NCBI RefSeq assembly: GCF_013409505.1
Contig: NZ_JACCBN010000001.1
Location: 4,588,001 to 4,652,000 of the forward strand
Direction of reading: 5' to 3'
Origin: Actinomycetospora corticicola
Lineage (GTDB): Bacteria; Actinomycetota; Actinomycetes; Mycobacteriales; Pseudonocardiaceae
DNA length: 64,000 nucleotides
Shown in pieces: positions 9,777 to 57,944 of this stretch. The notes under the pieces are model-generated. The model had not been told where the DNA came from. It did no database searches and saw only the letters and a program-made list of their open reading frames with translations. Positions within the stretch are counted from its first letter, which is position 1, and every line of letters starts with the position of its first letter. A program made the position numbers and the translations under genes.

Positions 9777-9829
9777 GAACGAACGGCACTCTCGCGCACA
9801 TAGAAGCTGCGAACGTGCCGCTCGTGCAC
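9777..9829 (+). repeat. Dispersed palindromic repeat, copy A
   Basis: Outer arms acgaacggcac (9778-9788) and gtgccgctcgt pair with one mismatch; between them lies the shared asymmetric core CGCGCACATAGAAGCTGCG. It is in the gap between the divergent mug gene and the small helical protein gene. Four related copies occur at 26634, 36849, 37998 and 57888. This one lies upstream of both flanking genes, so a plain terminator role is unlikely here. Confidence 0.85.
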
Positions 9830-9946
9830 GGCGGGGTGCGGCCGGACGGCCCAGCCGGTCGTCCCCAGCGGCATCCGGACCCCCGGTCGTCCCCAGCCTC
9901 GCGCGTGGCCGGGAGCGGACCCGACGTCGGGAGCGTCTGCAGGGAT

Positions 9947-10249
9947 ATGAGCGATGGATACACCGTGTCCCCGGACGCCCTGCGCCGCACCGTCGAGGAC
10001 ATCGAGTACGCCGTGGACGACGCGGCGAGGGCGGCCGCGTCGATGAGTGCTGCGGTCCGAGACCTGGCCCGGCTCGTCCCGGGGACCCGGACGGCGGAGC
10101 AGGCGCTGGTCCTGGCCCGGGAGTGGGAGGCCGACGCCGCGACCTGGCGGGCCGCGGCCGAGGCGTTGGAGGACCTGCTGGAGGACACCGCGACGGACGT
10201 CGGACTGGCCGACGGCGAGCTCGCGCGCCTGTTCGACGGCACGCGGTGA
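9947..10249 (+). CDS. Small helical protein, WXG100-like, upstream of a DUF1023 hydrolase
   Basis: A 100-residue, all-helical acidic protein. Two predicted helices (YTVSPDALRRTVEDIEYAVDD and WEADAATWRAAAEALEDLLED; shown in part) are separated by a turn near residues 44-50, a layout like WXG100/ESX-type proteins though without a clear central WxG. The start ATG at 9947 follows an AGGGAT site. Its stop overlaps the GTG start of the next gene (GTGA), so it is made together with the DUF1023 hydrolase. Such pairs are common in actinobacteria; secretion by a type VII system is possible but no ESX gene is in the window. Confidence 0.6.
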   Translation: MSDGYTVSPDALRRTVEDIEYAVDDAARAAASMSAAVRDLARLVPGTRTAEQALVLAREWEADAATWRAAAEALEDLLEDTATDVGLADGELARLFDGTR

Positions 10250-11526
10250 CCGCGCTCGCCCCGGTGGCCGTCGCCCTCGCCGCGGCCGTGGACGGGTGGG
10301 AGCACGCCGTGTTCGCCCCGCAACTGCCGGACGCGTGGCGGGGCGCGGCGGCCGACGCGGCGCGGGGCGAGCTCGTCCGGCTGCTCGACCGCGGGGGCGG
10401 GCTGCTCGACCGGGCCCGGCGGCTGTCCGCCGTGCTCGCCGACGTGGCCGCCCGGGAGCCGTTCGACGACGCCCGGCTGGCCGACGCCCTCGCCCGGGCG
10501 GCCCGGAGCGGGCCGACGGCCGTCGGGCCGTCCGCCGACGGCCCGGCAGCGGCTGCCGTCGCGCACTGGTGGGCGGGCCTGTCGCCGGCGGAGCAGGAAC
10601 AGCTGGTCGTCGGGCGCCCGGAGCTGGTCGGGGCCCTCGACGGCGTGCCGGCCGCCGTGCGCGACCGGGCGAACCGCGCCCGTCTCGCCGTGGCGCGGGC
10701 GGCCACCGAGGCGGAACTGGCGGGCCTGGCGCACGCCCGGGACGAGGCGACCGGGCTGGGGGAGCTGCAGGACGTCGAGGCGCGGCTGGCCGAGGTGCGC
10801 GGCCGCCTGGGACGGATCCTCGCGGTGGACGTGGCCGCCACCGACCACGCACTGCTGGCGCTCGACCCGGCGTCGGGACGGGCGGCCATCGGGATCGGGG
10901 ACGTCGACGCCGCGCGGCACGTGGGCGTGTTCGTGCCCGGGTTCACGGCGCGGGCGGAGGACCTGCCCGCGCGCACGGCCGAGCTGGCGGCGATGACGCG
11001 GCCCGGCGTCGCCACCGTGGCCTGGTACGACTACGCGGCGCCCCAGTGGCCGGAGGTGCTCGACCCGGCCCGGTCCGTGCTGGGCACCCGGGCGGCGACC
11101 GCGGCGTCCGGTCGGCTGGCGTCGTTCCTCGACGGGGTGGGCGTCGGGGGCGCGCACGTCACGGCGGTCGGCCACTCGTACGGGTCGCTCGTCGTGGCGC
11201 AGGCCGCGGCGACCTCACGGGCGGTCGACGACGTGGTGCTGCTCGGCTCGCCCGGGGTGACACCCGTGCCCCGGCAGCCGACGTGGGTGGCGGAGGCCCG
11301 GTTCGACCCGGTGGCCGACGCGGGCTGGTTCGGCGCCGACCCCACCGTGCTGCCGGGCATCCACCCGCTCGCGACGACGGGCGCCGTGGGACACGGGGAG
11401 TACCTACGGCCCGGCGGGACGAGCGCCCGGAACGTCGCGGCCGTCATCGGCGGCCGCGTCGACGACGTCTCGGCCGATCGCACGATCGGCGTGGGCGACC
11501 GTCTGCGGGACCTGCTGCCCCGGTGA
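10246..11526 (+). CDS. Alpha/beta hydrolase family protein (DUF1023)
   Basis: A 426-residue protein in two parts. Residues 1-190 are Ala/Arg-rich and helical; residues 200-426 form an alpha/beta hydrolase domain of the DUF1023 type with AARHVGVFVPGFTARAEDL, the tyrosine-containing VAWYDYAAPQWP, the nucleophile elbow AVGHSYGSLV and a late GHGEYL with a possible catalytic histidine. The GTG start overlaps the previous stop by 4 nt. The helical front part may pair with the 100-residue partner. Substrate is unknown. A hairpin (11527-11550) follows directly. Confidence 0.78.
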   Translation: MTALAPVAVALAAAVDGWEHAVFAPQLPDAWRGAAADAARGELVRLLDRGGGLLDRARRLSAVLADVAAREPFDDARLADALARAARSGPTAVGPSADGPAAAAVAHWWAGLSPAEQEQLVVGRPELVGALDGVPAAVRDRANRARLAVARAATEAELAGLAHARDEATGLGELQDVEARLAEVRGRLGRILAVDVAATDHALLALDPASGRAAIGIGDVDAARHVGVFVPGFTARAEDLPARTAELAAMTRPGVATVAWYDYAAPQWPEVLDPARSVLGTRAATAASGRLASFLDGVGVGGAHVTAVGHSYGSLVVAQAAATSRAVDDVVLLGSPGVTPVPRQPTWVAEARFDPVADAGWFGADPTVLPGIHPLATTGAVGHGEYLRPGGTSARNVAAVIGGRVDDVSADRTIGVGDRLRDLLPR

Positions 11527-11550
11527 GCACGGCCGGCGGACCGGCCGTGC
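11527..11550. terminator. Hairpin between convergent genes, likely bidirectional terminator
   Basis: Perfect 10-bp arms gcacggccgg and ccggccgtgc with a 4-nt loop start immediately after the DUF1023 stop and lie 17 bp from the stop of the convergent coiled-coil gene. There is no T-run, as is usual in very GC-rich actinobacteria. Confidence 0.6.
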
Positions 11551-11567
11551 CCACCCGGGGTGCGGGA

Positions 11568-12455
11568 CTAGCTGCCGGCCGGCTTGGTGCTGCCGGCCGA
11601 ACCGTTCGAGCTCGGCGAGATGGCGTCCGTCGGGCCCTTCGGGGGGACGATGCCACCCGGCTGGTCGGGGTCGGGCACGGCACCGGCGGCCGCGGCCGGG
11701 GTGTTCGTGGACCCTGCGGCCGGGCTCGGGGCCGGCTTCGGGCGCGGGGCGGGCGGCGGCGGGGGCGGGAGCTCCGGCGCACGGCGGGTGGCGACGATCG
11801 CGATGCCGGCACCGAGCACGCCGAGGACGATCCAGAGGCCCCAGCGGCGACGCTTCTTGTCCTGCTCCGGCTCGATCCGCTGCGACACCTCGCGGCGGGC
11901 CGTCGTCAGCCCGTCCTCGAGCTGGCCGCGGACCGTGTCGCCGAGGTCGCGCAGCTCGCCGACCGAGGTCGGCACCGGGGACGACTCGAGCGCCTTGCGG
12001 GCCTCCTTGAGCGAGGTGGGCACCGGCGAGGCGTCGAGGGCCTTCTTCGCGTCGTTCGCGTAGGACTTCGCCTGCTTGCGGGCGTCCTTGGCGTAGGAGC
12101 GGGCCTGCTTGCGGGCGTCCTTCGCGGCCTTGTTGGCGCGCTTGCGCGTCTCCGCCCTGGCCTCCTGCGCGCGCTTGCGGGCCTCGGCCTGCGCGTCCTC
12201 GGCGCGGGAACGGGCCTCGGCGCGGGCGTCGAGCACCCGCTGACGGGCCTGGTCGGCGGCGGCGCGGACGTCCCGACGGACCTCGGCGCGCTTCTTCGCC
12301 CCCTGCTTGCGGGCCTTCTCGCGCTCCTTACGAGCCTGCGCGGCGGCCTTCTCGGCGTGCTTGGCCGCCTTCTTGCGGGCGCGGCGTCCTTCCTTGCGCA
12401 GATCGTCCAGGTCCTCCCTGGCACCGATCACGGTCTTGCTGCTCAACGGCGACAC
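11568..12455 (-). CDS. Lys/Arg/Ala-rich coiled-coil membrane protein
   Basis: A 295-residue protein of unknown function. Residues 10-135 are a highly charged helical region made of repeated K/R-A-K/R-x-A blocks (for example KARKQGAKKRAEVRRDVRAA), predicted to be a long coiled coil and possibly nucleic-acid or membrane-surface binding. Two similar SSPVPTS/ASPVPTS blocks follow, then one membrane span (WGLWIVLGVLGAGIAIV) and a Pro-rich, low-complexity outer tail. The GTG at 12453-12455 is used. Its position next to the cyclophilin gene matches Rv0008c in M. tuberculosis, which is also a poorly understood membrane protein; orthology is not shown. Confidence 0.65.
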   Translation of the reverse strand: MSPLSSKTVIGAREDLDDLRKEGRRARKKAAKHAEKAAAQARKEREKARKQGAKKRAEVRRDVRAAADQARQRVLDARAEARSRAEDAQAEARKRAQEARAETRKRANKAAKDARKQARSYAKDARKQAKSYANDAKKALDASPVPTSLKEARKALESSPVPTSVGELRDLGDTVRGQLEDGLTTARREVSQRIEPEQDKKRRRWGLWIVLGVLGAGIAIVATRRAPELPPPPPPAPRPKPAPSPAAGSTNTPAAAAGAVPDPDQPGGIVPPKGPTDAISPSSNGSAGSTKPAGS

Positions 12456-12551
12456 CTCACTCCTCGGTGGCGGCCGATTCTGCCGCCATTCCCCTGACTG
12501 CAAGTGCCCGACCCGCCGGTGCGTCACACCCGCTACGCCGTCGGTGGCACC

Positions 12552-13091
12552 ATGACGTCCGTGACGAATGCCGAGAACGGCCCGACCGCGACGCTGCACA
12601 CCTCGAACGGCGACATCACCGTCAACCTCTTCCCCGATCAGGCACCCAAGACGGTGTCCAACTTCGTGGGTCTCGCGACCGGAGAGGGCCAGTACAGCGA
12701 GCCGAACGCGAAGGGCTCGTCCAGCGGGCCGTTCTACGACGGAACGATCTTCCACCGGGTCATCGCCGGATTCATGCTGCAGACCGGGGATCCCACCGGA
12801 ACGGGTCGCGGTGGGCCCGGCTACAAGTTCGGTGACGAGTTCCACCCCGACCTCCGCTTCGACCGCCCCTACCTGCTCGCGATGGCCAACGCCGGGCCCG
12901 GCACCAACGGCTCGCAGTTCTTCATCACCGTGGCGCCCACCACCTGGCTGAACCGCAAGCACACCATCTTCGGCGAGGTGGCCGACCAGGCGAGCCGCGA
13001 CGTCGTCGACTCGATCGCCGCCACGCCCACCGGCCCCGGCGACCGCCCGACCTCCGACATCGTGATCGAGAGCGTCGAGATCTCGAAGTAA
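12552..13091 (+). CDS. ppiA: Peptidyl-prolyl cis-trans isomerase, cyclophilin type
   Basis: A 179-residue cytosolic cyclophilin. The catalytic region FHRVIAGFMLQTGDPTGTG, the GSQFFIT core and the substrate-pocket stretch WLNRKHTIFGEV are all intact, and there is no signal peptide. It speeds proline isomerisation in folding proteins. The ATG at 12552 is the start supported by similarity of the first strands (TATLHTSNGDITVNLFPD). It diverges from the coiled-coil gene and lies upstream of a rhomboid protease, the same order as around ppiA in other actinobacteria. Confidence 0.94.
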   Translation: MTSVTNAENGPTATLHTSNGDITVNLFPDQAPKTVSNFVGLATGEGQYSEPNAKGSSSGPFYDGTIFHRVIAGFMLQTGDPTGTGRGGPGYKFGDEFHPDLRFDRPYLLAMANAGPGTNGSQFFITVAPTTWLNRKHTIFGEVADQASRDVVDSIAATPTGPGDRPTSDIVIESVEISK

Positions 13092-13126
13092 CCGGACACC
13101 CACGGGCGGACGGGGACACTGGGGAC

Positions 13127-14005
13127 ATGAGTAGTAGTCCGCCGGGCGCGGACACCCAGGTCTGCGTCCGCCACCCCGACCGTCCGACCGGACTGCGGTG
13201 CACGCGCTGCGACCGGCCGGCGTGCCCGCAGTGCCTGCGAGACGCCTCGGTCGGGATGCAGTGCGTGGACTGCGTGACCGAGGGCGCCCGCACGCAGCGA
13301 CGGGGCCGGGACCTGCGGCAGCCGACCGCCGTCGTCGTCCCGACCCTCATCGCGCTCAACGTCACCGTCTTCGCCTGGACCGTCGCCGACGCCGGCAGCG
13401 TGCAGGGCAACACCGGCGGCGCCGTCTTCGCGGGCGGCGCCCTCGTCCCGCTGCAGGTGGCGGGCGGCGACTGGTGGCGGCTGCTGACGTCGGGCTTCCT
13501 GCACATCGGCCCGATCCACCTGCTGTTCAACATGGTCGCGCTGTGGTTCATCGGGCGGGACATCGAGCTGGCGCTCGGGCGGGTGCGCTTCTCCGTGCTC
13601 TACGGGGCGTCGCTGCTCGGTGGCTCGGCGGCCGTGATGCTGTTCGGGTCGCCGGTCGGGGCGACGGCCGGCGCGTCCGGGGCCATCTTCGGCCTGATGG
13701 GTGCCCTCGTGGTGCTGCTGCGCCGGATGCGGCTGCCGGCGACGTCGGCGATGGTGATCATCGGGTTGAACGTCGTGTTCTCGCTGACGTTCCCCGGCAT
13801 CTCGCTGCTCGGTCACCTGGGCGGACTGCTGGTCGGGACCGGGGTGGCCGTGGGCATGGCCTACGGGCCGGCGCGCTCACGCCCGGTCGTCGGCCTGTGG
13901 ATCGCCGCGGCGGTCGTCGTCGCCCTCGTCGCCGCGATCGCGCTGCGCGACCTCTCCTTCGGCAGCGTCGTCTGCGGCGCCACCACCTGCCGCGTCGGCG
14001 GCTGA
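13127..14005 (+). CDS. Rhomboid family intramembrane serine protease with N-terminal zinc finger
   Basis: A 292-residue membrane protease. Residues 12-50 hold a B-box-like zinc finger (CVRHPDRPTGLRCTRC, CPQC, CVDC). Six or seven membrane spans follow. Rhomboid landmarks are LTSGFLHIGPIHLLFNM, the nucleophile serine in GATAGASGAIFGLMG, and the catalytic histidine in LLGHLGGLLVG. It should cleave membrane proteins within the bilayer; substrates are unknown. The C-terminal 43 codons overlap the convergent PH-domain gene by 129 bp. Confidence 0.9.
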   Translation: MSSSPPGADTQVCVRHPDRPTGLRCTRCDRPACPQCLRDASVGMQCVDCVTEGARTQRRGRDLRQPTAVVVPTLIALNVTVFAWTVADAGSVQGNTGGAVFAGGALVPLQVAGGDWWRLLTSGFLHIGPIHLLFNMVALWFIGRDIELALGRVRFSVLYGASLLGGSAAVMLFGSPVGATAGASGAIFGLMGALVVLLRRMRLPATSAMVIIGLNVVFSLTFPGISLLGHLGGLLVGTGVAVGMAYGPARSRPVVGLWIAAAVVVALVAAIALRDLSFGSVVCGATTCRVGG

Positions 14006-14467: not shown

Positions 14468-14492
14468 TGGGGACGAATGACATCGGTGTGAT

Positions 14493-25392: not shown

Positions 25393-25475
25393 GGGCGAGT
25401 GGCGGAATGGCAGACGCGCACGGTTCAGGTCCGTGTATCCGAAAGGATGTGGGGGTTCAACTCCCCCCTCGCCCA
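25393..25475 (+). tRNA. tRNA-Leu, anticodon CAG
   Basis: The acceptor arms GGGCGAG and CTCGCCC pair fully, with A as discriminator base at 25475. The anticodon stem CACGG/CCGTG holds the loop TTCAGGT, giving CAG. A long variable arm (TATCCGAAAGGAT) marks a class II tRNA and the T arm is GGGGG-TTCAACT-CCCCC. The 3' CCA is not encoded. A leucine tRNA upstream of fhaA is also found in mycobacteria. Confidence 0.95.
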
Positions 25476-25595
25476 CACTGAGTCTTTCCTCTTGACCGCA
25501 CCGCGGTCGCGATGCGCGTGCCGCCTGACCCTGACCGTCCTCCGGGAGCTCTTCCCGACGTCAGGTGCTTCCCGGACCGCTGGCAGGCTGCGGTC

Positions 25596-26633
25596 ATGCC
25601 GCTCGCGCACAAGATCTGCGATCTGACCGGTCCCGGCATCACCGACCGCTTCGGCGTCGGCGGGACCGACCTCGGCGCCACCGTCCGCGCGCCGGACGGT
25701 CGCCTGGTCTCGGTGTTCGGTGACACGTTCGAGATCGCAGGGGTCGGCGGGCCCGGCTGGCGCTCCCCGGTGGTGCTCTTCGCCGACCCCTCCTCGGTGG
25801 CGACCGGCCTGCGCTGGACCGGGTGCGCCGGCGAGGACGGCTACGCCCAGCAGGTCGTCGGCTACCGCCACAAGGGCCTGCGGCGGATGGGCACCTCGAT
25901 GCTGTCGCTGCGCCGGATCTCGACGGTCCTGCCGACGGACATGATCACGCTCGGGGACGACGTGTGGCTGCACGTCATGGCCTGCCGCGAACTCGGGCAC
26001 CCGCGCGCGACCGAGCTGCACCGCTCCCGCGACTCCGGGGCGACCTGGGAGCCCGCCGACGTCCGCTGGCCGGGGGACCACCACGGCGGGCTGTTCCAGA
26101 TGCTCACCTGGGAGACCGACGGCACCTGGGTCTACGTCCTGACGACGAGCTTCCAGCGCGCCCACGGCCTGCTGCTGCACCGCGTCCCCGTCGACCGGCT
26201 CGACGACGCGAGCGCCTGGGAGGGCTGGGGCTTCGACGGCGCGACGTGGGACTGGGGGCGCTCGCCGACCGAGGTGCTCCCCGGGGCCTTCGGGGAGATG
26301 TCGCTGCGGCGGGTGCCGGACGCGAGCGGCCGCGAGTGGTGGCTGCTCGTCGTCTTCGACGCCGGGAACTACCGGATCGACGCGCTGCTGCTCGACCACC
26401 CGACCGCGAACCTGCACACCGCCCCGCGCACGACCGTGGTCGCCGGTGCCGGGTGGGGCGACGAGGACCACGCCGGTGGTCGGGTCGCCCAGCTCTACGG
26501 CGGCTACACGGTGCCGGGCTCGACGGTGGAGGACCTGCACCTGGTGGTCAGCCAGTGGAAGACCGACACCAACTGGCCGTACAAGGCCATGCAGTTCCGG
26601 GTCGACCTGTCGGAGCTGCTCCCCACCCGGTGA
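25596..26633 (+). CDS. DUF4185 domain-containing protein
   Basis: A 345-residue protein of beta-propeller look, with repeated aromatic strands such as RLVSVFGDTFEIAGVGGPGW, LGDDVWLHVMACRELG, HRSRDSGATWEPADVRW and LYGGYTVPGSTVEDLHLVVS. The DUF4185 family is common in actinobacteria and may act on or bind sugars; function is not known. No signal peptide is seen from the ATG at 25596. An ATG at 25512 would add 28 unlikely residues. A palindromic repeat follows right after its stop. Confidence 0.72.
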   Translation: MPLAHKICDLTGPGITDRFGVGGTDLGATVRAPDGRLVSVFGDTFEIAGVGGPGWRSPVVLFADPSSVATGLRWTGCAGEDGYAQQVVGYRHKGLRRMGTSMLSLRRISTVLPTDMITLGDDVWLHVMACRELGHPRATELHRSRDSGATWEPADVRWPGDHHGGLFQMLTWETDGTWVYVLTTSFQRAHGLLLHRVPVDRLDDASAWEGWGFDGATWDWGRSPTEVLPGAFGEMSLRRVPDASGREWWLLVVFDAGNYRIDALLLDHPTANLHTAPRTTVVAGAGWGDEDHAGGRVAQLYGGYTVPGSTVEDLHLVVSQWKTDTNWPYKAMQFRVDLSELLPTR

Positions 26634-26683
26634 GCGAACGGCACTCTCGCGCACAGAGATGCTGCGGAGGTGCCGCTCGTTCG
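26634..26683 (+). repeat. Dispersed palindromic repeat, copy B
   Basis: Begins the base after the DUF4185 stop. Arms cgaacggcac and gtgccgctcg flank the core CGCGCACAGAGATGCTGCG, same orientation as copies A and E. It fills the gap between two convergent genes and could end transcription from both sides. Confidence 0.88.
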
Positions 26684-26715
26684 GGCCGGGGGTGCGGCCG
26701 ACCGGTCTAGACCCA

Positions 26716-34863: not shown

Positions 34864-35670
34864 ATGGCGACGCTCAACTCGGTGCACCGCGCCCTGCGCG
34901 TGCTCGAGGTCGTCGCCGAGGCGGGTGACGGGATCACCGCGAAGGCCGTCGCCCGGCGGCTCGAGTACAACCTCTCGACCACCTACCACCTGCTGACGAG
35001 CCTGGTGGAGGACGGCTACCTGGTGCGCCTGGAGCCCGCCCGCGGGTTCGGGCTGGGTCCCAAGCTGCCCGCCCTGCACGACCGGCTCCGCTCCCAGCTG
35101 CCCATCCCGCCCGGTCTCGGCGCGACGTTGCGCGAGGCCCACGCGGCGGCCGGGGCCGCGGTGCTCTACGTCGCCTTCCGGGACGCGGACGTCGTCGTCG
35201 TCGACGTCGACGAGTGCCCGGCGCACCCGGTCCCCACGATCTCGACGTGGCGGGGGGCGCTGCACGCGACGGCGGTCGGGAAGCTCCTGCTCGCGGACCT
35301 GTCGCCCGCCCGCCTCATCGAGGTCCTCGCCCGCGACGGGCAGCGCCGGCTCGCCCACCGCACGATCCTCGACCCGGACGAGCTGGACTACGAGCTCGAC
35401 CAGGTCCGTCGTCGGGACCTCGCACTGGACCGCAGCGAGTTCCACGAGCGGCTGGCCTGCATGGCGGCGCCGGTCCGTCGACCCCTTCCCGACGGTGGGC
35501 GGGGCGAGTTGGTCGGGGCGGTGTCGGTCGCGGTGCCGGTCGTGCCCGCCGGCGGCCCGGGCAGCCTCTTCGACCGCCGCGTGCGGATGGAGCGGGCGGT
35601 GCGGGGCGCGGCCGCCCGAGCGGCGTCGGCGTTCGAGGACGAGGTTTCCGTCAGGTGGGACCGGGGCTGA
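34864..35670 (+). CDS. IclR family transcriptional regulator
   Basis: A 268-residue regulator. The winged helix-turn-helix is in residues 1-60 (VHRALRVLEVVAEAGDGITA, then LSTTYHLLTSLVEDGYL) and the effector domain spans about 80-260 (TWRGALHATAVGKLLLADLS, SEFHERLACMAAPVRR). It may sense a small carbohydrate or acid. It diverges from the GH65 gene and likely represses or activates it, as neighbouring IclR proteins often do. The ATG at 34864 is chosen over one at 34855, which abuts its own ribosome site. Confidence 0.88.
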   Translation: MATLNSVHRALRVLEVVAEAGDGITAKAVARRLEYNLSTTYHLLTSLVEDGYLVRLEPARGFGLGPKLPALHDRLRSQLPIPPGLGATLREAHAAAGAAVLYVAFRDADVVVVDVDECPAHPVPTISTWRGALHATAVGKLLLADLSPARLIEVLARDGQRRLAHRTILDPDELDYELDQVRRRDLALDRSEFHERLACMAAPVRRPLPDGGRGELVGAVSVAVPVVPAGGPGSLFDRRVRMERAVRGAAARAASAFEDEVSVRWDRG

Positions 35671-35702: not shown

Positions 35703-36830
35703 ATGCCCGCACGTGAGACCGCTCCGTTCCGCGCCGACCACGTCGGCAGCCTCCTGCGACCGCCCGCACTGCTCGAGGCCCGGGGCGCCCACGCCGAGGG
35801 CCGCCTCGACGACGCCGGGCTGCGCGCCGCCGAGGACGAGGCGATCCGCGACGTCGTCGCGATGCAGGAGTCGGTCGGCCTCCAGGCGGCGACCGACGGC
35901 GAGTTCCGGCGCACCTCCTGGCACATGGACTTCCTCTACCAGCTCGACGGCGTGTCCTCCTCGAAGGACTCGTCGGTCGAGGTGGCCTTCCGCAACGCCT
36001 CCGGCGACCTGACCTTCGCGGCGATGTCGCTCGTGATCGACCAGCGGATCGGGCTCTCGACGACGATCTTCGGCGACGCGTTCTCGATGCTGGCCTCCAC
36101 GGTGACCAGCGCGGTGCCGAAGCTGACCATCCCCTCGCCGTCGATGCTGCACTACCGCCTCGGCGGTGCACCGGTGCACGAGGGCTCGCCCTACTCCGAC
36201 CCGGACGAGTTCTGGGCCGACCTCGCGTCGGCCTACGCGTCCGAGGTCTCGCGGCTCTACGAGGCGGGCGTCCGGTACCTGCAGCTCGACGACACCTCGC
36301 TGGCCTACCTGAACGACCCGGCGCAGCGCGAGTCGATGGCCGCCCGCGGCGAGGACGCCGACCACATGCACGAGCGGTACGTCGACACCATCAACCTGGC
36401 GCTGCGCGACCGGCCGTCGGACCTCCGGGTCACCACGCACATGTGCCGCGGCAACTACCGCTCGTCCTGGGCCGCCGAGGGCGGTTACGACCACGTCGCC
36501 GAGAAGGTGTTCGGCGGCCTCGAGATCGACGGGTTCTTCTGCGAGTACGACGACGCCCGCTCCGGTGACTTCTCCCCGCTGCGCTACCTCCCGCAGGGTG
36601 ACCAGCAGATCGTGCTGGGCCTCGTGACCACGAAGTCGGGCGAGCTGGAGTCGGCCGACACCCTCAAGCGCCGTATCGAGGAGGCCACGAAGTACGTGCC
36701 GCTCGAGCAGCTCTGCCTGTCCCCGCAGTGCGGCTTCTCCTCGACCGTGGAGGGCAACGCGCTGTCCTACGACCAGGAGGTGGCCAAGCTCGAGCTGGTC
36801 GTCTCGGTGGCGCAGGACGTCTGGGGCTGA
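35703..36830 (+). CDS. Cobalamin-independent methionine synthase-like protein (MetE C-terminal family)
   Basis: A 375-residue single-barrel enzyme like YxjG/YxjH. Landmarks are FRADHVGSLLRPPALLEARG, GVRYLQLDDTSLAYL, and the zinc ligands in RVTTHMCRGNYRSSW and LCLSPQCGFSS. It transfers a methyl group to a thiol, but substrates of the short family members are often not folate; here unknown. The ATG at 35703 has GAGG seven bases upstream. It follows the IclR gene by 32 bp on the same strand and could be co-transcribed with it. Confidence 0.85.
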   Translation: MPARETAPFRADHVGSLLRPPALLEARGAHAEGRLDDAGLRAAEDEAIRDVVAMQESVGLQAATDGEFRRTSWHMDFLYQLDGVSSSKDSSVEVAFRNASGDLTFAAMSLVIDQRIGLSTTIFGDAFSMLASTVTSAVPKLTIPSPSMLHYRLGGAPVHEGSPYSDPDEFWADLASAYASEVSRLYEAGVRYLQLDDTSLAYLNDPAQRESMAARGEDADHMHERYVDTINLALRDRPSDLRVTTHMCRGNYRSSWAAEGGYDHVAEKVFGGLEIDGFFCEYDDARSGDFSPLRYLPQGDQQIVLGLVTTKSGELESADTLKRRIEEATKYVPLEQLCLSPQCGFSSTVEGNALSYDQEVAKLELVVSVAQDVWG

Positions 36831-36848
36831 TCCCCGCCCTCCCTGAGG

Positions 36849-36895
36849 GAGCGGCACTTTCGCAGCTTCTATGTGCGCGAGGGTGCCGCTCGTTC
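36849..36895 (-). repeat. Dispersed palindromic repeat, copy C
   Basis: Arms gagcggcac (36849-36857) and gtgccgctc with the core in the opposite orientation to copies A, B and E (read on plus: CGCAGCTTCTATGTGCGCG). Lies 18 bp after the MetE-like stop and upstream of the AbiEi-like gene. Confidence 0.86.
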
Positions 36896-37016
36896 ATGAC
36901 GACGGGTGCGCACCCGGCCGAGCGGGCTGCCCCCCGTCGGTCCACAGCCGGCCGTCCGTCCCCAGAGCACCGTTCGCGGTTACCGCTGTGAGCGGGTCCG
37001 GCCGGACCGTGACCCC

Positions 37017-37994
37017 ATGCCACGCCGCAGCCGGGTCGACCCGTCCGACCTCTCCGCCCTCGCCCCGCTCGCCGTCGCCCGCGTCGCCGACCTGGTGGCC
37101 CTCGGCCTGCCGTCCGCCACGATCTCCCAACGGGTCCGGTCGGGGCGTTGGCGGCGTCTGTTCCCCGGGGTCGTCCTGATGCAGAGCGGTGCGCCGACCC
37201 GGGAACAGCTGGTCGTGGCGGCGATGCTCTACGCCGGGACGGACAGCATCCTGTCCGGCGTCGAGGCCGCCCGCCGGCACGATCTCAACCGTCTTCCCGA
37301 CGACCGGTCGATCCACCTGCTGATCGCCGAGGACCGCCGACGTCGCTCGGTCACGGACCTCATCGTGGAGCGCACCCACCGTCTCCCGCCGCCCGTCGTG
37401 CGTGGCGGTGTCCGGATCGCGCCGGTGGAGCGGGCCGTGCTGGACGCCGCACGCCACTGCTCGGATCGCGACCGGGTGCGCGCGATGCTCGCCGAGGCCG
37501 TCCAACGTGGCCGGACCACGGTCGAGCGGCTGCAGGCGGAGCTGCGGGTGGGCAATCAGCGGGGGTCGGGGCTCGTGCGCGAGGTGCTCGAGGAGATCGC
37601 CGACGGCATCCGGTCGGCCGCCGAGGGCTGGGGACGGGATCTCCACGCGCGGAGCGGGCTGCCGCCGATGCTGTGGAACCCGACACTGCGATGGCCGGAC
37701 GGGCGGTTCCTCGCGCGGCCCGACGGCTACCTCGCCGAGGTCGGGATGGCGTGGGAGCAGGACTCCCTGGAGTTCCACCCCGTCGAGGAGGACGACACCG
37801 CACGGCGGCGGGCGCGGATGGTCAGCGCCGGCGTGGTGGTGGTGCACCATCGTCCGCGCCGACTCCGGATCGAGCCGGCCCTCGTGATCGACGAGCTGTG
37901 GGCCCACTTCCGGCTCGCGGCCTCCCGTCCCGCGCCGGACCTGATCGTGATCCCTTCGGACCAGCGCAATCGGCCAGTCGCCACCCCCCTGTGA
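37017..37994 (+). CDS. AbiEi-type antitoxin-domain protein, orphan
   Basis: A 325-residue protein. The front half resembles the type IV toxin-antitoxin AbiEi family: ATISQRVRSGRWRRLFPGVV and AAMLYAGTDSILSGVEAARR. The rest includes APVERAVLDAARHCSDRDRV and a C-terminal, endonuclease-like region (FLARPDGYLAEVGMAWEQDS, RARMVSAGVVVVHHRPRRLR) of the kind found in actinobacterial DUF559 proteins. No AbiEii toxin gene is adjacent. Palindromic repeats lie on both sides (36849, 37998). The ATG at 37017 is chosen; in-frame sequence upstream is non-coding in look. Confidence 0.66.
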   Translation: MPRRSRVDPSDLSALAPLAVARVADLVALGLPSATISQRVRSGRWRRLFPGVVLMQSGAPTREQLVVAAMLYAGTDSILSGVEAARRHDLNRLPDDRSIHLLIAEDRRRRSVTDLIVERTHRLPPPVVRGGVRIAPVERAVLDAARHCSDRDRVRAMLAEAVQRGRTTVERLQAELRVGNQRGSGLVREVLEEIADGIRSAAEGWGRDLHARSGLPPMLWNPTLRWPDGRFLARPDGYLAEVGMAWEQDSLEFHPVEEDDTARRRARMVSAGVVVVHHRPRRLRIEPALVIDELWAHFRLAASRPAPDLIVIPSDQRNRPVATPL

Positions 37995-37997
37995 CGC

Positions 37998-38047
37998 ACG
38001 AACGGCACCTTCGCAGCATCTATGTGCGCGAAAGTGCCGCTCGTTCG
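37998..38047 (-). repeat. Dispersed palindromic repeat, copy D
   Basis: Starts 3 bp after the AbiEi-like stop. Arms acgaacggcac and gtgccgctcgt flank CGCAGCATCTATGTGCGCG, the same orientation as copy C. It fills the gap to the convergent DUF59 gene. Confidence 0.88.
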
Positions 38048-38059: not shown

Positions 38060-38815
38060 TCAGACCCCGTAGCGCGCCGCGAGCTGGCCGCGGCAGATGC
38101 TGGTGTTCGCGTCGACGCCGACCTGGTAGCTGCGGGCCTTGCGCAGGTGCAGCGGCAGGGCGTCCACCCCGACGGTGCGCCCGGTCGGGTCCACCACCAG
38201 CGGGTCGGAGTCCTCGGAGGGGATCCCCAGTTCCCGACGACGGGCGCGGAGACGACGCAGGTCGTCCGAGGCCCCGCTCGACTCCACGGCCTCGCCCAGC
38301 GTCATCGTGGCGACCTGCTCCGGGGTCGCGCCGGCCCGCATCAGCGGGCGGACGACGAGGTCGGTGCCGGCCATCAGCGCCCGCTCGGTGAACGTGCGCC
38401 GCAGCTCGTCGAGCTCGGCGACGGCCTCGCCGACCTCGGTGCCGGCCATGGAGGTCACGAACCCGGCCCGGGCGGCCACCCCCGCGTTGATGGCGTCGGA
38501 GGCGAAGTGGTCGATGAGGACCACGTCGGCCCGCACGACCCCTGCGGCGGCCGAGACCACGTCGTGGGCGTCCGCCACCATGAGGAACGCGAAGTTCGGG
38601 GCACAGAAGTAGGTGGGCAGGCGCAGTTCCACGTGCGCGACGCGAGAGTCCGAGACGTCGACGGCGGCGACGAAGTCCAGCGAGACCACGTCGGTGTCGA
38701 GCTCGGGGTCGCGCACGGAGCGCAGCGCCTCCCACACCCGGGCCGTCGTCCCCGTGGCGGCCGCCGCGGCGTCCGCGTTGGAGCCGAGGGCCCGGGTGTC
38801 GGAGAGGACCGTCAT
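38060..38815 (-). CDS. DUF59/MIP18-family metal-sulfur cluster assembly-like protein
   Basis: A 251-residue protein. Residues 24-100 match the DUF59 fold (VWEALRSVRDPELDTDVVSL, LRLPTYFCAPNFAFLM with a conserved Cys). The C-terminal half (SMAGTEVGEAVAELDELRRT and onward) is less familiar and ends in NTSICRGQLAARYGV. Proteins of this length with a DUF59 front are encoded beside propane and acetone monooxygenase genes, where they may help load iron into the oxygenase; that is knowledge of context, not proof. Its ATG overlaps the amidohydrolase stop (ATGA). Confidence 0.75.
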   Translation of the reverse strand: MTVLSDTRALGSNADAAAAATGTTARVWEALRSVRDPELDTDVVSLDFVAAVDVSDSRVAHVELRLPTYFCAPNFAFLMVADAHDVVSAAAGVVRADVVLIDHFASDAINAGVAARAGFVTSMAGTEVGEAVAELDELRRTFTERALMAGTDLVVRPLMRAGATPEQVATMTLGEAVESSGASDDLRRLRARRRELGIPSEDSDPLVVDPTGRTVGVDALPLHLRKARSYQVGVDANTSICRGQLAARYGV

Positions 38816-52454: not shown

Positions 52455-52494
52455 TACGGGTGGGGGTTCACACCGACCGAGCCCACGCCGGTCG

Positions 52495-54011: not shown

Positions 54012-55040
54012 GTGGACGCCAGCGAGGAGCTGCAGCGGCTCGACGGCGATCTCGCCGCCGGACGCATCGACGCGACCTCCTACCGCCGCCGTCGCGACGC
54101 CCTCGTCGCGCGCCGTCGCGAGGAGGAGGCGCCCGCCTGGGCCGCGGCAAGTGCGACGAAGACCACACCCGATCGGACGGTTGAGGCGCCGCCACCGGCC
54201 GCCGGCGAGCCCGCCGTCGCCCGACCCGCTGCCGCCGAGGCCGCCGTCGCCGAGTCCGCTGCCGAACCTGCCGCGGCAACGCCGGCTCCCGTCGAGACCG
54301 CTCCCGTCGAGACCGCTCCCGCCGTGGCCGCTCCCGCTGTGGCCGCTCCCGCCGAGTCGGCTCGCACCGAGACCGCTCCCCCCGAGCCGGTTGCCGCGTC
54401 GGACCCGCTCCCGGTCGCCCCGCCCGCGGCGGACCCGCTCCCACCCGTCGTCGGTCCGACCCCCGTCGGGCCCACGGCTCCCGTGCCAACCGCGGCGGAC
54501 CCCCTGCCGACGGCACCGGGCGGAACACGCTCCCGGCCCGCCCGTCCGAGCGACGTGGTGGCCGCACCGGGCACCGACGCGTTCCCCGTGCAGCATCCGG
54601 TCCCGCCCCCGCGACCGGTCGCTCCCCCGGACCCCTTCCCGCCGCCGTTCCGGTGGAGCCCGACCCCCGCCGTCCCCGACGCCGACGTCACGCAGGTGGT
54701 GCCGGACGCCGCCGACGCCACGCAGGTCGTGCCGCCGTCGGCGTTCCGGCCGCCGTCGTTCGGGCCGCCGACCTCCTGGCCGGCGACGTCCGACGTCCCG
54801 GAACGGACCCAGGTGGTCCCCGGGATCGAGGCGGGTCGGCGGCCGTCGGCGCCGGTCCCGGCGTCGCGGACCACCCCGCCGTGGGCGGACCGCGCGCCGG
54901 AGCGGCGCGACCCGTCGTCGGGCATGGCGGGGTCGCACGTGTTCTACGGCGGGCGGCGCGACCTGGCGTCGACGCTCGGCACGGCGGCCGTGGTCGTCGT
55001 CGTGATCCTGATCCTCGTGCTGTCCTTCACGCTGGGCTGA
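54012..55040 (+). CDS. Membrane-anchored protein with SHOCT-like front and TQVVP motifs
   Basis: A 342-residue protein of unknown function. Residues 2-32 (DASEELQRLDGDLAAGRIDA) resemble a SHOCT-type oligomerisation motif. A long Pro/Ala/Glu-rich disordered stretch follows, with three TQVVP motifs (about residues 230, 237 and 269). The last 20 residues are one membrane span (VVVVVILILVLSFTLG), so most of the chain faces the cytosol. The GTG at 54012 is chosen since SHOCT homology starts there. TQVVP could be a phosphothreonine target for FHA proteins, which is speculation. A TACCGT -10-like box is at 53969-53974. Confidence 0.55.
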   Translation: MDASEELQRLDGDLAAGRIDATSYRRRRDALVARRREEEAPAWAAASATKTTPDRTVEAPPPAAGEPAVARPAAAEAAVAESAAEPAAATPAPVETAPVETAPAVAAPAVAAPAESARTETAPPEPVAASDPLPVAPPAADPLPPVVGPTPVGPTAPVPTAADPLPTAPGGTRSRPARPSDVVAAPGTDAFPVQHPVPPPRPVAPPDPFPPPFRWSPTPAVPDADVTQVVPDAADATQVVPPSAFRPPSFGPPTSWPATSDVPERTQVVPGIEAGRRPSAPVPASRTTPPWADRAPERRDPSSGMAGSHVFYGGRRDLASTLGTAAVVVVVILILVLSFTLG

Positions 55041-55056
55041 CCTACGCTGCGCGGTC

Positions 55057-55863
55057 GTGGCGACGCTGGTGACCTTCCACGCCCATCCCGACGACGAGTG
55101 CATCACCTGCGGCGGGGTGATGCGGGCGGCGGCGGACGCCGGCCACCGGGTGGTGCTCGTCATCGCCACCGGCGGTGAGCACGGCGAGATCGTCCCGAAC
55201 GTGCTCGACGAGGGGGAGACCCTCGCCCACCGCCGGCACGCCGAGACCCTGGAGTCGGCGCGCATCCTCGGGGCCGCCCGCACCGAGTTCCTCGGCTACG
55301 TCGACTCCGGGATGGTCGGCACCGCGACCAACACCGCCGAGGGGGCCTTCGCCGCGGCGGACGTCGAGGAGGCGGCCGAGCGGCTGGCGACGATCCTGCG
55401 CGAGGAGGACGCGGACGTCCTCACCCACTACGACGACCACGGCGGCTACGGCCACCCCGACCACGTGCAGGTCCACCACGTCGGGCAGCGCGCCGCCGAG
55501 CTCGCCGGCACGCCGCGGGTCTACCAGGCCACCACCAACCGCGACGAGATGCGCCGCCTGATGGCGATGGCGCGGGAGATGGGCCTCGGGCTCGGCGACG
55601 GCGAGGGGCCCGACGAGCGCGAGCTGGCGGCGATGGGCACGCCCGAGGCGGAGCTCACCACCCGCGTCGACGTCACCCCGTGGCTCGGGGCCAAGCGCGA
55701 CGCCATGCGCGCCCACGCCAGCCAGATCGCGCCCGACTCGTTCTTCCTCGCCCTGCCCGACGAGGCCTTCGCGGCCGCCTTCGGCACGGAGTGGTTCCTG
55801 CGGGTCGGGGAGCCGACGGGCGGACCGTTCGAGACGGACCTGTTCGGCCCCGGCGCGGCGTAG
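55057..55863 (+). CDS. PIG-L family deacetylase (MshB/Mca-like)
   Basis: A 268-residue zinc hydrolase. It has the metal motif [14 protein letters not shown] and [11 protein letters not shown] with the second set of ligands, and [13 protein letters not shown] near the active site. In actinobacteria this fold serves mycothiol synthesis (MshB) or mycothiol-conjugate cleavage (Mca); length and motifs fit either or a paralogue. The GTG start lies 16 bp after the membrane protein stop. The msrA gene next to it also concerns redox defence. Confidence 0.85.
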
Positions 55864-55873
55864 CGTCGCCCGC

Positions 55874-56539
55874 ATGAGCTGGTTCGGTCGCGACAAGCGG
55901 CAGATGGTCGACCCCGCGGACGCGCTGCCCGGACGTCGGTCGCCGCTGCCCACCCTCGAGCGCAGCCTGGTCTCCGGGCGCCCGCTGAAGCCGCCCTTCC
56001 CCGAGGGTCTGCAGACCGCGGTGTTCGGCATGGGCTGCTTCTGGGGCGCCGAGCGGCTGTTCTGGAACACGCCCGGGGTCTGGGTGACCGCCGTGGGCTA
56101 CTCCGGCGGCTACACGCCGAACCCGACCTACGAGGAGACCTGCACCAACCTCACCGGCCACGCCGAGGTGGTGCTCGTCGTCTTCGATCCGGCGGTGGTC
56201 ACCTACGAGCAGCTGGTGCGGCTGTTCTGGGAGTCCCACGACCCGACGCAGCGCATGCGCCAGGGCAACGACGTCGGCACGACCTACCGGTCGGCGATCT
56301 ACTACGCCGACGAGGCGCAGCGGGCGGTCGCCGAGTCCACCCGCGACGCGTTCCAGCAGGCGCTGACCTCCGCCCGGAAGGGCGAGATCACCACGGAGAT
56401 CGCCCCGCTCGGCGCGTTCTACTACGCCGAGGACTACCACCAGCAGTACCTGCACCGGATCCCGAACGGCTACTGCTCGATGGCCGGCACCGGGGTCTCG
56501 TGCCCGACCGGGTTGGGCGTCACGGCCGAGCAGCCCTAG
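55874..56539 (+). CDS. msrA: Peptide-methionine (S)-S-oxide reductase MsrA
   Basis: A 221-residue repair enzyme. The active site [40 protein letters not shown] and AEDYHQQYL are those of MsrA. A further cysteine pair near the end ([10 protein letters not shown]) may act in recycling. It reduces methionine sulfoxide in proteins. An N-terminal extension of about 45 residues (including [12 protein letters not shown]) is common in actinobacterial MsrA. It follows the PIG-L gene by 10 bp and likely shares its transcript. Confidence 0.95.
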
Positions 56540-56550
56540 TCTCCCCGGCC

Positions 56551-57447
56551 GTGGAGACTGAGATCACGGTCGAGTCCGACGGAGCCCGCCTGGGGACGAC
56601 GTACCTGCGGGCCGCCGACGAGTCGCTGGCCGGTCCGGGCGGCCGCCCCTGCGTGGTGATGGCCCACGGCTTCGGTGCCACGCGCGACTCCGGGCTGCGC
56701 CCGTTCGCCGAGGCCTTCACGACGGCGGGTGCGGACGTCCTGCTCGTCGACTACCGCGGCTTCGCCGACTCCGAGGGCGCCCCCCGGCAGCACGTCGACC
56801 ACCGGGCACACCGCCGCGACTACCACGCGGCGGTCGCCCGGGCCCGGCTGATCGACGGGGTGGACCCGGAGCGGATCGTGCTGTGGGGCTCGTCGTACTC
56901 GGGCGGGCACGTGGTCGCGGTGGCCGCGGCGGACCCCCGGATCGCCGGGGTCATCTCGCAGGGCGCCGCGATGGACGGGCTCGGTGCGCTGGTGGAGATC
57001 CTGCGCTACGGCGGGCCGTGGCAGCTGCTCAAGGTCTCGGCGCACGCGATCGCCGACGCGGTCGGTCACGCCCTCGGCCGGCCGGACCACCGGGTGGCGG
57101 TCTTCGGTCCGCCCGGGGCGGTCGCGGCGATCACCTCGCCCGACGCCCAGAGCGGGTACGGCGCCATCATCGGCCCGTCGTTCGTCAACGACATGCCCGC
57201 GCGGGACATCCTGACGATCCCGTTCAACCGGCCGGTCACGGCGGCACCGCGCGTCCGGTGCCCGATGCTGCTCGTGGTCGCGGCGTCGGACTCGATCGCC
57301 CCGCCGGCCGCGGTGCGCAAGGTCGCGGCGACGGCGGGCGGGCCGGTCGAGACCGTGGAGATCGACTGCGGGCACTTCGACATCTACCTCGGAGAACCGT
57401 TCGCGACCTCGGTCGAGCGGCAGATCGCGTTCGTCCGGTCGATGTAG
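56551..57447 (+). CDS. Alpha/beta hydrolase (dienelactone-hydrolase/xylan-esterase-like)
   Basis: A 298-residue serine hydrolase. Oxyanion region VVMAHGFGATRDSGL, nucleophile VLWGSSYSGGHV, a late acid loop VVAASDSIAPP and histidine in DCGHFDIYLGEPF are in order. Substrate is unknown. The GTG at 56551 is 11 bp after the msrA stop, so it may be the third gene of that operon. Confidence 0.82.
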   Translation: METEITVESDGARLGTTYLRAADESLAGPGGRPCVVMAHGFGATRDSGLRPFAEAFTTAGADVLLVDYRGFADSEGAPRQHVDHRAHRRDYHAAVARARLIDGVDPERIVLWGSSYSGGHVVAVAAADPRIAGVISQGAAMDGLGALVEILRYGGPWQLLKVSAHAIADAVGHALGRPDHRVAVFGPPGAVAAITSPDAQSGYGAIIGPSFVNDMPARDILTIPFNRPVTAAPRVRCPMLLVVAASDSIAPPAAVRKVAATAGGPVETVEIDCGHFDIYLGEPFATSVERQIAFVRSM

Positions 57448-57556
57448 CGACACCCGTCCGGGTGGTGGTGTGTCGGCGGTGAAACAGTTCCGTGGCCGCA
57501 GCGATATCCCCGGTGTCAGCGGGCTGAGGGGCCCGCACTTCTCGGGGGAGAACACC

Positions 57557-57844
57557 ATGGGCCGTCACCACACCGCCACCGCGCTCGTCGAGCTCGCCGT
57601 CCCCGCCCCGCGGGTGTCGCCGGAGTCGTCCGCGGCCCTGCGGTCGGCGCCGTTCCCGGTGATCCCCGCCCCGCGGCAGGCCCCCGAGGCCGCTCCGGCC
57701 CCCGTCGTCGTGCCGGAGCCGCGCGGCTGGCGCGCCCGTCGCGCCGCGAAGGCCGACGCCGCAGCCCGGCGCGCCCAGGCCGTCGCCGTCGCGCACGCCC
57801 AGCGCCGCGCTCGCCAGGTCGCCCTCGCGTCGCTCACCGACTGA
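57557..57844 (+). CDS. Small Ala/Arg-rich hypothetical protein
   Basis: A 95-residue protein. The first half is Pro/Ala-rich (VPAPRVSPESSAALRSAPFP), the second a basic helix (WRARRAAKADAAARRAQAVA). The ATG at 57557 has GGGGAG six bases upstream; a GTG at 57470 would add 29 residues. I recognise no family. Composition and strong ribosome site support a real gene, but it could be lineage specific. Confidence 0.5.
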   Translation: MGRHHTATALVELAVPAPRVSPESSAALRSAPFPVIPAPRQAPEAAPAPVVVPEPRGWRARRAAKADAAARRAQAVAVAHAQRRARQVALASLTD

Positions 57845-57887
57845 CTCGGCCGGCCGCACCGGGTGGCCCGTCCGCGAACGACCCTCC

Positions 57888-57944
57888 ACGAACGAACGGC
57901 ACTCTCGCGCACATCGATGCTGCGAGGGTGCCGTTCGTGCGTTC
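57888..57944 (+). repeat. Dispersed palindromic repeat, copy E
   Basis: Perfect 10-bp inner arms cgaacggcac and gtgccgttcg, extended to about 14 of 15 bp, with core CGCGCACATCGATGCTGCG. It is the most symmetrical copy and lies between two convergent genes, 10 bp from the response regulator stop. Confidence 0.88.

What the first reader, a model, noticed from the sequence alone, without database searches (positions are those of the whole stretch)
9777..57944. Five-copy family of dispersed palindromic repeats with an asymmetric core
The same element of about 50 bp is found at 9777-9829, 26634-26683, 36849-36895, 37998-38047 and 57888-57944. Outer arms read GAACGGCAC and GTGCCGCTCGTTC; the core CGCGCACATAGATGCTGCG is kept but not symmetrical, so each copy has an orientation (A, B, E one way; C, D the other). 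All are between genes; B, D and E sit in convergent gaps. Shared core plus palindrome resembles REP-type elements. No RAYT/Y1 transposase is in the window, so the mobilising enzyme, if any, is elsewhere.
Basis: partly seen in the sequence, partly recalled or inferred. Interest (0 to 1): 0.78.

Follow-up and report, generated by a model that had tools for sequence, protein, structure and literature searches.

The report
Gene-end hairpin repeats with partner gene
The five repeats belong to a family of about eighty hairpin-forming DNA repeats at gene ends in an actinobacterium, and they appear to be paired with an unusual nuclease-like gene that sits between two of them, a pairing also seen for related genes in other species.

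Summary
The five copies belong to a family, here called T1, with 81 distinct places in the 6.17-Mb Actinomycetospora genome. By gene calling, 54 lie in convergent gaps, 23 in codirectional gaps and 4 inside predicted genes; none was called divergent, though copy A is divergent by its Pfam-supported neighbour. In 67 of the 77 convergent or codirectional cases the hairpin lies within 25 nt of a stop codon. No Y1/RAYT transposase was found in 18 genus genomes, and there is no T-tract.

A candidate partner is inside the window. Gene 37017-37994 (AbiEi-type domain plus DUF559/REase-like domain) lies between copies C and D. Its homologs have matching repeats on both sides in 62 of 72 loci (61 of 71 distinct genes), against 0 of 63 control genes; under a stricter rule, 26 of 32 against 4 of 291. 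Three repeat types (T1, T6, T8) are also dispersed here. A Rhodococcus ruber homolog shows the same layout.

At orthologous gene ends the hairpin stays while its type changes between species, and loops flip in place. I read this as a REP/RAYT-like system with a non-Y1 partner. Mobilisation is inferred, not shown.

The parts
9776..9835 (+). T1 hairpin copy A, in a divergent gap between a UDG-family gene (9170-9754 -) and 9947-10249 (+)
   Evidence: CM match 74.4 bits; context; same place in G013
26631..26690 (+). T1 hairpin copy B, convergent gap; the hairpin starts at the stop codon of the + gene
   Evidence: CM 74.5 bits; context; loop flipped in G013
36837..36896 (-). T1 hairpin copy C, after the methionine-synthase-like gene 35703-36830 and upstream of the AbiEi/REase-like gene
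   Evidence: CM 70.9 bits; orthologous gaps carry other hairpin types in other species
37017..37994 (+). AbiEi-type (winged-helix antitoxin) + DUF559/REase-like gene, 325 aa, flanked by T1 copies C and D; candidate partner of the T1 family
   Evidence: Pfam AbiEi_4 1.3e-5; PADLOC AbiEi 2.6e-14; the REase-like part rests on homologs: profile matches PDB 3hrl endonuclease-like E 8.8e-4 over profile positions 201-306; flanking-repeat tests
37988..38047 (-). T1 hairpin copy D, convergent gap between the AbiEi/REase-like gene and an FeS-assembly gene (38060-38815 -)
   Evidence: CM 79.3 bits
57889..57948 (+). T1 hairpin copy E, convergent gap before the response-regulator gene 57954-58640 (-)
   Evidence: CM 81.3 bits

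Best explanation
The repeats are the dispersed, non-autonomous copies of a gene-plus-hairpin system. The gene product is an AbiEi-type winged-helix protein fused to a DUF559/Vsr-like restriction-endonuclease-fold domain. Most gene copies are bracketed by hairpins or repeats of their own type. For some types, solo hairpins have spread to the 3' ends of other genes, mostly convergent ones, where they are tolerated or used as bidirectional transcript ends. SHOWN: the family, its 3'-end placement, the two-sided matched repeats around the gene family, sites with one hairpin and no gene, replacement of one hairpin type by another at the same gene end between species, and loop inversion in place. INFERRED: the protein recognises the palindromic arms through its winged helix; its nuclease domain nicks or cuts palindromes at gene ends; repair from another copy installs the cognate hairpin (homing-like spread); the 13-nt loop flips by template switching or cruciform processing; and the hairpins end transcripts.
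For: 81 T1 places in the genome, reversed core pattern 0. Gap types: 54 convergent, 23 codirectional, 0 divergent, 4 inside predicted genes, against 26 / 138 / 110 for gaps >=60 bp without the element in the same stretches. Gene 37017-37994 lies between two T1 copies. Homologs carry matching repeats on both sides in 62 of 72 loci (61 of 71 distinct genes, one gene being held twice) against 0 of 63 control genes and 20 of 600 cross pairs. With both neighbouring gaps >=60 bp it is 26 of 32 homologs against 4 of 291 other genes, Fisher p 1.5e-28 treating loci as independent. Counted by protein cluster (13 clusters of the 57 intact proteins at 55% identity), 12 of 13 include a member with the match. 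By inspection, repeat type follows gene subfamily. The T6 family (125 places in this genome, reversed pattern 0) brackets homologs in G000, G008 and G009; the T8 family brackets L423 in this genome. Two other genera in the family (G052, G137) and Rhodococcus ruber show the same layout; in R. ruber, with NCBI gene annotation, 6 such hairpins lie in 4 convergent, 2 codirectional and 0 divergent gaps. 26 of 29 called homologs sit between neighbours that would converge without them (30 loci, one gene not called). G003 and G008 lack the gene at this locus and hold one hairpin there. Key residues across 59 proteins: S200 and E203 in 58, H254 in 59, D236 as D in 56 and E in 2. 11 of 38 shared pairs are loop-flipped, and pairs 15 and 37 keep flanks and arms colinear.
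Against: No movement has been caught. Of 53 G013 copies scanned, 40 had their G000 counterpart in hand: 38 are shared and the other 2 face a different hairpin in G000 (one T6-like, one with the same arms but a shorter loop), so I saw no clean empty-to-filled solo insertion and no target-site duplication. Several gene-linked types (GAAGGGC.., TAGCGGAT.., GAGTGCGG..) occur only 1-2 times in 737 kb of this genome, so not every gene has dispersed copies. G017 has 66 T1-like matches, yet its ortholog is bracketed by another type (T5), and none of the 5 of its 6 listed homologs that I fetched is bracketed by T1. 10 of 72 homologs lack a match, though L356 and L362 show hairpins on both sides. The loci come from related genomes, so p-values overstate independence. 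In R. ruber the gene next to the homolog is bracketed too, because three hairpins lie in a row. Scored by hairpin strength at a low threshold (15), controls are also sometimes two-sided: 28 of 68 homologs against 9 of 61. In T6-type proteins the E of ExD is replaced. The structure model was poor. Termination has no RNA evidence: there is no T-tract, and A-C mismatches are as common as G-U in codirectional copies (G-U/A-C 20/18 and 13/11).
Confidence: 0.55

Rival explanations
1. The hairpins are only bidirectional transcript terminators or mRNA-end stabilisers. Their sequence families arise by template switching and ectopic conversion, and the AbiEi/REase gene happens to lie between two of them.
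For: Placement within 25 nt of a stop codon in 67 of 77 cases, convergent bias and no divergent calls. Orthologous gene ends mostly hold some strong hairpin, of changing type. Hairpins without T1 are also enriched in convergent gaps: 21 of 44 score >=18 against 6 of 120 divergent.
Against: Matched repeats bracket homologs in 26 of 32 cases against 4 of 291 other isolated genes. Terminators need no conserved loop or fixed spacer, yet the core is nearly invariant at most positions and the spacer is 15 nt in 21 of 22 fetched copies from four genera. No T-tract.
Confidence: 0.17
2. The hairpins are operators or binding sites of the AbiEi-like winged-helix protein, which autoregulates or marks chromosomal sites, without any mobility.
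For: AbiEi antitoxins are known to bind inverted repeats at their own promoter (recalled, not from a call). In related hairpins the arms are themselves palindromes, and T1 stem positions 3/49 vary independently, as in two protein half-sites.
Against: Repeats lie on both sides of the gene, often directly at or after its stop codon. Solo copies sit at gene ends, not promoters. Copy number differs greatly between relatives (55, 57 and 66 against 3 and 7).
Confidence: 0.14
3. The hairpins are recombination sites of a mobile gene cassette (integron-like), the AbiEi/REase gene being cargo.
For: One-hairpin/no-gene and two-hairpin/gene states at the C/D locus (G003, G008 against G000 and others). The gene is inverted at this locus in G002. 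Identical 51-nt hairpins bracket the gene in G052.
Against: The bracketed gene is consistently of one family (26 of 32 homologs against 4 of 291 other genes), unlike varied cassettes. No integrase was identified, but none was searched for beyond Y1.
Confidence: 0.08
4. A classical REP family mobilised by a Y1 RAYT transposase.
For: Palindromic, intergenic, 3'-end biased, as reported for REPs (PMC3733652, passages read).
Against: No PF01797 match in any of 18 genus genomes, while the control search found it in 5 of 14 known genomes. No GTAG/CGTC tag.
Confidence: 0.02

Closest known systems
REP elements and RAYTs (GTAG-/CGTC-tagged palindromes; PMC3733652, passages read)
   Same: Short dispersed palindromes near stop codons, mostly convergent or codirectional; can supply the stop codon; a partner gene flanked by the repeats.
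   Different: No GTAG/CGTC tag; the partner is an AbiEi-type protein with a DUF559/REase-like domain instead of a Y1 (HUH) transposase; long 19-bp stem and conserved 13-nt loop.
AbiEi antitoxins (type IV toxin-antitoxin AbiE) and DUF559/Vsr-like endonuclease-fold proteins
   Same: The partner protein family carries AbiEi_4/AbiEi_1 and DUF559/MTES_1575 matches.
   Different: In the window both neighbours are metabolic-type genes, with no AbiEii toxin gene next to it; the two domains are fused; bracketed by palindromes.
Intergenic stem-loop families and bidirectional terminators (PMC1590033, abstract and passages)
   Same: Stem-loops enriched in convergent gaps and just after stop codons; some form repeat families.
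   Different: Fixed length and conserved loop across copies, no T-tract, link to a gene family.
Neisseria/Haemophilus uptake sequences paired as terminators (paired-terminator role recalled; PMC2346458 seen as search listing only)
   Same: Inverted pairs at gene ends.
   Different: Single half-sites are nearly absent here: 94 of 95 half-site matches lie in T1 hairpins.
Template-switch hairpin evolution and plastid loop flip-flops (PMC8604942 and PMC8794818, outlines with abstracts; PMC6342102, passages)
   Same: Spacer inversion and arm homogenisation in inverted repeats.
   Different: Here seen across a dispersed bacterial family: 11 of 38 shared pairs flipped.

Membership tests
REP (GTAG/CGTC superfamilies) | Short dispersed intergenic palindrome | tested here: met
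   81 places, 51-nt hairpin
REP (GTAG/CGTC superfamilies) | Unpaired GTAG or CGTC tag at the foot | tested here: not met
   Column counts of hairpin and flanks show no such tag
REP (GTAG/CGTC superfamilies) | Convergent/codirectional placement next to stop codons | tested here: met
   54 convergent, 23 codirectional, 4 inside, 0 divergent called; copy A is a divergent exception
RAYT-mobilised REP | Y1 transposase (PF01797) in the genome | tested here: not met
   0 of 18 genus genomes; control search found it in 5 of 14
RAYT-like gene-repeat pairing (function, not homology) | Gene bracketed by its own repeat type | tested here: met
   62 of 72 loci against 0 of 63; 26 of 32 against 4 of 291
RAYT-like gene-repeat pairing (function, not homology) | Bracketing type also dispersed as solo copies | tested here: inconclusive
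   Met for T1, T6 and T8; other types occur only 1-2 times in 737,385 bases held
RAYT-like gene-repeat pairing (function, not homology) | Partner protein binds and cuts the repeat | not testable with these tools
   Needs biochemistry; only residue conservation is available
Canonical intrinsic terminator | GC hairpin followed by T-tract | tested here: not met
   TTT within 12 nt in 2 of 127 (right) and 3 of 127 (left) flanks of G000 and G013 copies
DNA uptake sequence | Many single copies besides inverted pairs | tested here: not met
   1 of 95 half-sites lies outside T1 hairpins in 689,301 bases
AbiE type IV toxin-antitoxin | AbiEi antitoxin domain | tested here: met
   PADLOC AbiEi model PDLC02249 in 21 of 21 aligned homologs
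AbiE type IV toxin-antitoxin | Adjacent AbiEii nucleotidyltransferase toxin | tested here: not met
   Window neighbours are Meth_synt_2 and FeS_assembly_P genes; tested at this locus only
DUF559/Vsr-like nuclease | PD-(D/E)XK-type core residues | tested here: inconclusive
   S, E, D and H conserved in 56-59 of 59 proteins, but ExD varies (E in 45, D in 41 of 59) and is replaced in T6-type proteins; 3hrl profile match E 8.8e-4

The most novel reading that the evidence does not exclude
A previously undescribed class of selfish genetic element: an AbiEi-winged-helix/endonuclease-fold protein that homes cognate hairpins into gene ends, replacing resident hairpins, with many parallel gene-hairpin lineages per genome, reaching from Pseudonocardiaceae to Rhodococcus. 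It would give a function to the many orphan AbiEi/DUF559 genes of actinobacteria and explain the turnover of their gene-end hairpins.
Probability: 0.38. Interest if true: 0.93.

Novelty: new variant of a known kind. Interest (0 to 1): 0.82.

Why it matters
REP/RAYT is, to my knowledge (recalled), the main known pairing of a chromosomal gene with dispersed bacterial palindromes, and it rests on a Y1 enzyme. A parallel system with an unrelated antitoxin-nuclease protein would show that this way of life arose more than once. It would explain where the gene-end hairpins of these high-GC actinobacteria come from, and give a testable role to an orphan family now named only by its antitoxin domain. 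It also offers a natural record of hairpin loop inversion (11 of 38 shared pairs) and of hairpin replacement at fixed gene ends.

Tried and rejected
Rejected: Y1/RAYT mobilisation. Canonical T-tract terminators. Uptake-sequence-like single sites. A genus-wide single sequence: the exact core is patchy, 5 of 18 genomes at <=2 mismatches, while a looser core finds 17 of 18 genus genomes; outside the genus 73 of 372 genomes have one to three matches, against about 40 with reversed-pattern matches by my count of the listing. RNA-level selection on pairing: G-U and A-C mismatches are about equally frequent. LexA boxes were considered by eye (arms with GAAC-N5-GTTC against the recalled N4) and not pursued. 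The single-sequence AlphaFold model of the window protein was too poor to search (pLDDT 40.5). An alignment-based structure was not attempted, because the tool's text admits only loci from other named tools. Four other genes with two-sided matched repeats have ordinary domains, and their repeats are mostly of dispersed families. A T8 pair around a gene at 4,963,261-4,964,332 does not bracket a homolog. A second plasmid search with the T6-type protein found nothing.

Dropped before counts: two tandem half copies (L011, L012) left out of alignment A2; 3 of 71 loci without a homolog hit left out (L416, L420, L421; with L116 they were added); L422 and L377 hold the same gene; pairs 0 and 2 map to one G000 site; 11 of 68 homologs with internal stops or broken frame left out of the protein clusters; 4 of the 57 G013 places were not fetched.

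Literature: ten searches, of which asked for this kind of element; none listed a description of it. Only open-licence PMC papers are held, so absence from print is not shown.
Full report
Check of the observation. The window lies at 4,588,001-4,652,000 of a single 6,166,488-base contig. The genus is judged to be Actinomycetospora (Pseudonocardiaceae), because the exact core hits only Actinomycetospora records among named genomes (23 stretches), and several of those contigs have the lengths of contigs of the same-genus genome G013. An exact core pattern has 29 matches in the genome and none when read backwards. A covariance model built from 28 copies gives 148 strand-wise matches, which merge to 81 distinct places; this is a lower bound, since only 150 candidates were scored.

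Anatomy. The element is a 51-nt hairpin: a 19-bp stem around a 13-nt asymmetric loop (consensus GCACATAGATGCT). Some loop and stem positions vary while their neighbours are nearly invariant in 63 G000 and 52 G013 copies. Stem pair 15/37 covaries strongly, 7/45 and 14/38 weakly, and 3/49 not detectably. All five window copies fold well below shuffled sequence. There is no T-tract. Half-sites hardly occur alone: 94 of 95 are inside T1 hairpins.

Placement. With a gene caller written for this purpose, 54 copies are in convergent gaps, 23 in codirectional gaps, 4 inside predicted genes and 0 in divergent gaps. Gaps of 60 bp or more without the element in the same stretches are 26 convergent, 138 codirectional and 110 divergent (the stretches were chosen for the element). 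The upstream (or nearest convergent) stop codon is within 25 nt in 49 of 54 convergent and 18 of 23 codirectional cases. Copy A is one of the four 'inside' calls: the left neighbour 9170-9754 (-) is a true UDG-family gene and the gap is divergent, also in G013.

Relatives. At <=2 mismatches the core is patchy in the genus (5 of 18 genomes). A looser core (TCGYGCRNNTNGANGCNRCGA) is found in 17 of 18 genomes, with one control match. Outside the genus 73 of 372 genomes have one to three matches, against about 40 with reversed-pattern matches by my count, so it is essentially genus-bound. A stem pattern (GAACGGNACTTTCG, spacer of 10-30, reverse complement) occurs in 25 of 386 family genomes and 5 of 46 genera with no control match. 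In 22 fetched copies from four genera the spacer is 15 nt in 21; their gaps are 11 convergent, 8 codirectional, 2 divergent and 1 inside a predicted gene (gene caller trained on G000).

Gene ends keep a hairpin, not a sequence. In orthologous gaps C and D, and in the two gaps of stretch L169, most relatives hold a strong hairpin just after the same genes, but its type differs by lineage. Exceptions with no strong hairpin in the scanned 160 nt exist, and some missing cases are contig ends. Of 53 G013 copies scanned, 40 had their G000 counterpart in hand: 38 shared pairs (37 distinct G000 sites) and 2 copies facing another hairpin, one T6-like and one with the same arms but a short loop. In 11 of the 38 pairs the loop is inverted relative to the flanking genes, and in pairs 15 and 37 arms and flanks are colinear, so only the loop turned. 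Orthologous copies are barely more alike (87.6%) than non-orthologous ones between the genomes (85.1%), though the difference is significant by permutation (0 of 5000). Template switching is a known cause of spacer inversion and arm homogenisation (PMC8604942, abstract).

The partner gene. The gene between C and D (37017-37994) has an AbiEi_4 domain. A homolog in another genus (G052) was found bracketed by two identical hairpins of that genome's own type, and a third genus (G137) showed the same. All 18 genus genomes carry 3-8 matches to this protein. I collected 72 homolog loci (70 Actinomycetospora, G052, G137; one gene held twice). Scoring the best local match between the 350 nt upstream and the 350 nt downstream, 62 of 72 reach 20 or more, against 0 of 63 other genes in the same loci and 20 of 600 cross pairs, which include pairs of one subfamily. 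Restricting to genes with both gaps of at least 60 bp, in stretches already rich in repeats, gives 26 of 32 homologs against 4 of 291 others (Fisher p 1.5e-28). These loci come from related genomes, so the p-value overstates independence; by protein cluster, 12 of 13 clusters (57 intact proteins, 55% identity) include a member with the match. By hairpin strength alone, 15 of 68 homologs have a strong hairpin (score 18) on both sides against 0 of 61, but at score 15 it is 28 of 68 against 9 of 61. The four other genes have ordinary domains.

Repeat type follows gene subfamily, by inspection. Orthologs of the window gene carry T1, T2 or T5. A second subfamily carries GAAGGGC..GCCCTTC hairpins, a third GAGGGTCACC.., a fourth GAGGGGA.. 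and the largest T8-like and related repeats. The T6 family, 125 places in this genome and present in 18 of 18 genus genomes with two genomes showing a control match, brackets homologs in G000, G008 and G009. T8 brackets the fragmentary homolog L423. Other types occur only once or twice in the 737,385 bases held.

Locus history. 26 of 29 called homologs lie between neighbours that would converge if the gene were absent. At the C/D locus G003 and G008 have no such gene and one hairpin; G007 keeps only a 35-residue match; G002 has the gene inverted. So the gene-bearing unit occupies the same kind of site as the solo hairpins.

Outside the family. One homolog is in the plasmid collection, on a Rhodococcus ruber record (42.9% identity). 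It is bracketed by 47-nt hairpins with a constant 23-nt spacer. BLAST finds 10 places of the sequence in this 74-kb record; six full hairpins pass my pattern, and by NCBI annotation they lie in 4 convergent and 2 codirectional gaps. The neighbouring gene is bracketed as well, since three hairpins lie in a row.

Protein. PADLOC AbiEi matches 21 of 21 aligned homologs. Pfam (E up to 0.1) gives AbiEi_4 in 11, MTES_1575 REase in 5, DUF559 in 4 and AbiEi_1 in 4 of 21. The profile matches PDB 3hrl, 'endonuclease-like protein', E 8.8e-4, over profile positions 201-306. S200 and E203 are kept in 58 of 59 aligned proteins, H254 in 59, and D236 is D in 56 and E in 2. The likeness to Vsr is recalled, not tested.

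Reading. The simplest account is a REP/RAYT-like pairing with a different protein: gene plus flanking cognate hairpins, and solo copies at gene ends, turned over by a homing-like process. Association, placement, type replacement and loop flips are shown; binding, cutting and termination are inferred. The results that weigh against it are the lack of a caught insertion, gene-linked types without dispersed copies, the G017 case (66 T1-like matches, none of 5 fetched homologs bracketed by T1), the altered ExD of T6-type proteins, and the absence of RNA evidence.

Noticed in passing
G000 whole genome; in the window the gap 6903-6986; also L418, L420, L416: A second, more numerous hairpin family, mostly 40 nt (GTGAGCA..TGCTCAC, 125 places); in several convergent gaps it runs exactly from one stop codon (TGA) to the opposite stop (TCA).
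   Followed up: partly
G000, e.g. 5484650, 891766, 4149873, L423: A third dispersed family (T8, GGCAGGAAAGCGTCGTTGCTGTCA..), mostly at gene ends, bracketing a fragmentary AbiEi/REase homolog.
   Followed up: partly
window 60428-60536 (+): TPP riboswitch, 66.9 bits.
   Followed up: no
window 25393-25476 and 35173-35260: tRNA-Leu(cag) and tRNA-Val(gac) genes.
   Followed up: no
G000 chromosome ends: T1 copies are sparse within 0.45 Mb of the record ends: 4 of 81, binomial p 0.011; origin position not determined.
   Followed up: no
L098 (G070) 1504-1611: Palindromic arms GCGAAAGNNNCTTTCGC occur as a tandem array at exact 30-bp spacing in another genus.
   Followed up: no
NZ_CP145323.1 (L426, L427): This Rhodococcus ruber 'plasmid' carries pks13, fadD32, serS and arabinosyltransferase genes and looks like chromosomal sequence.
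   Followed up: no
G002 C3:9474-10415: The AbiEi/REase-like gene is inverted between its two hairpins relative to the other species.
   Followed up: partly
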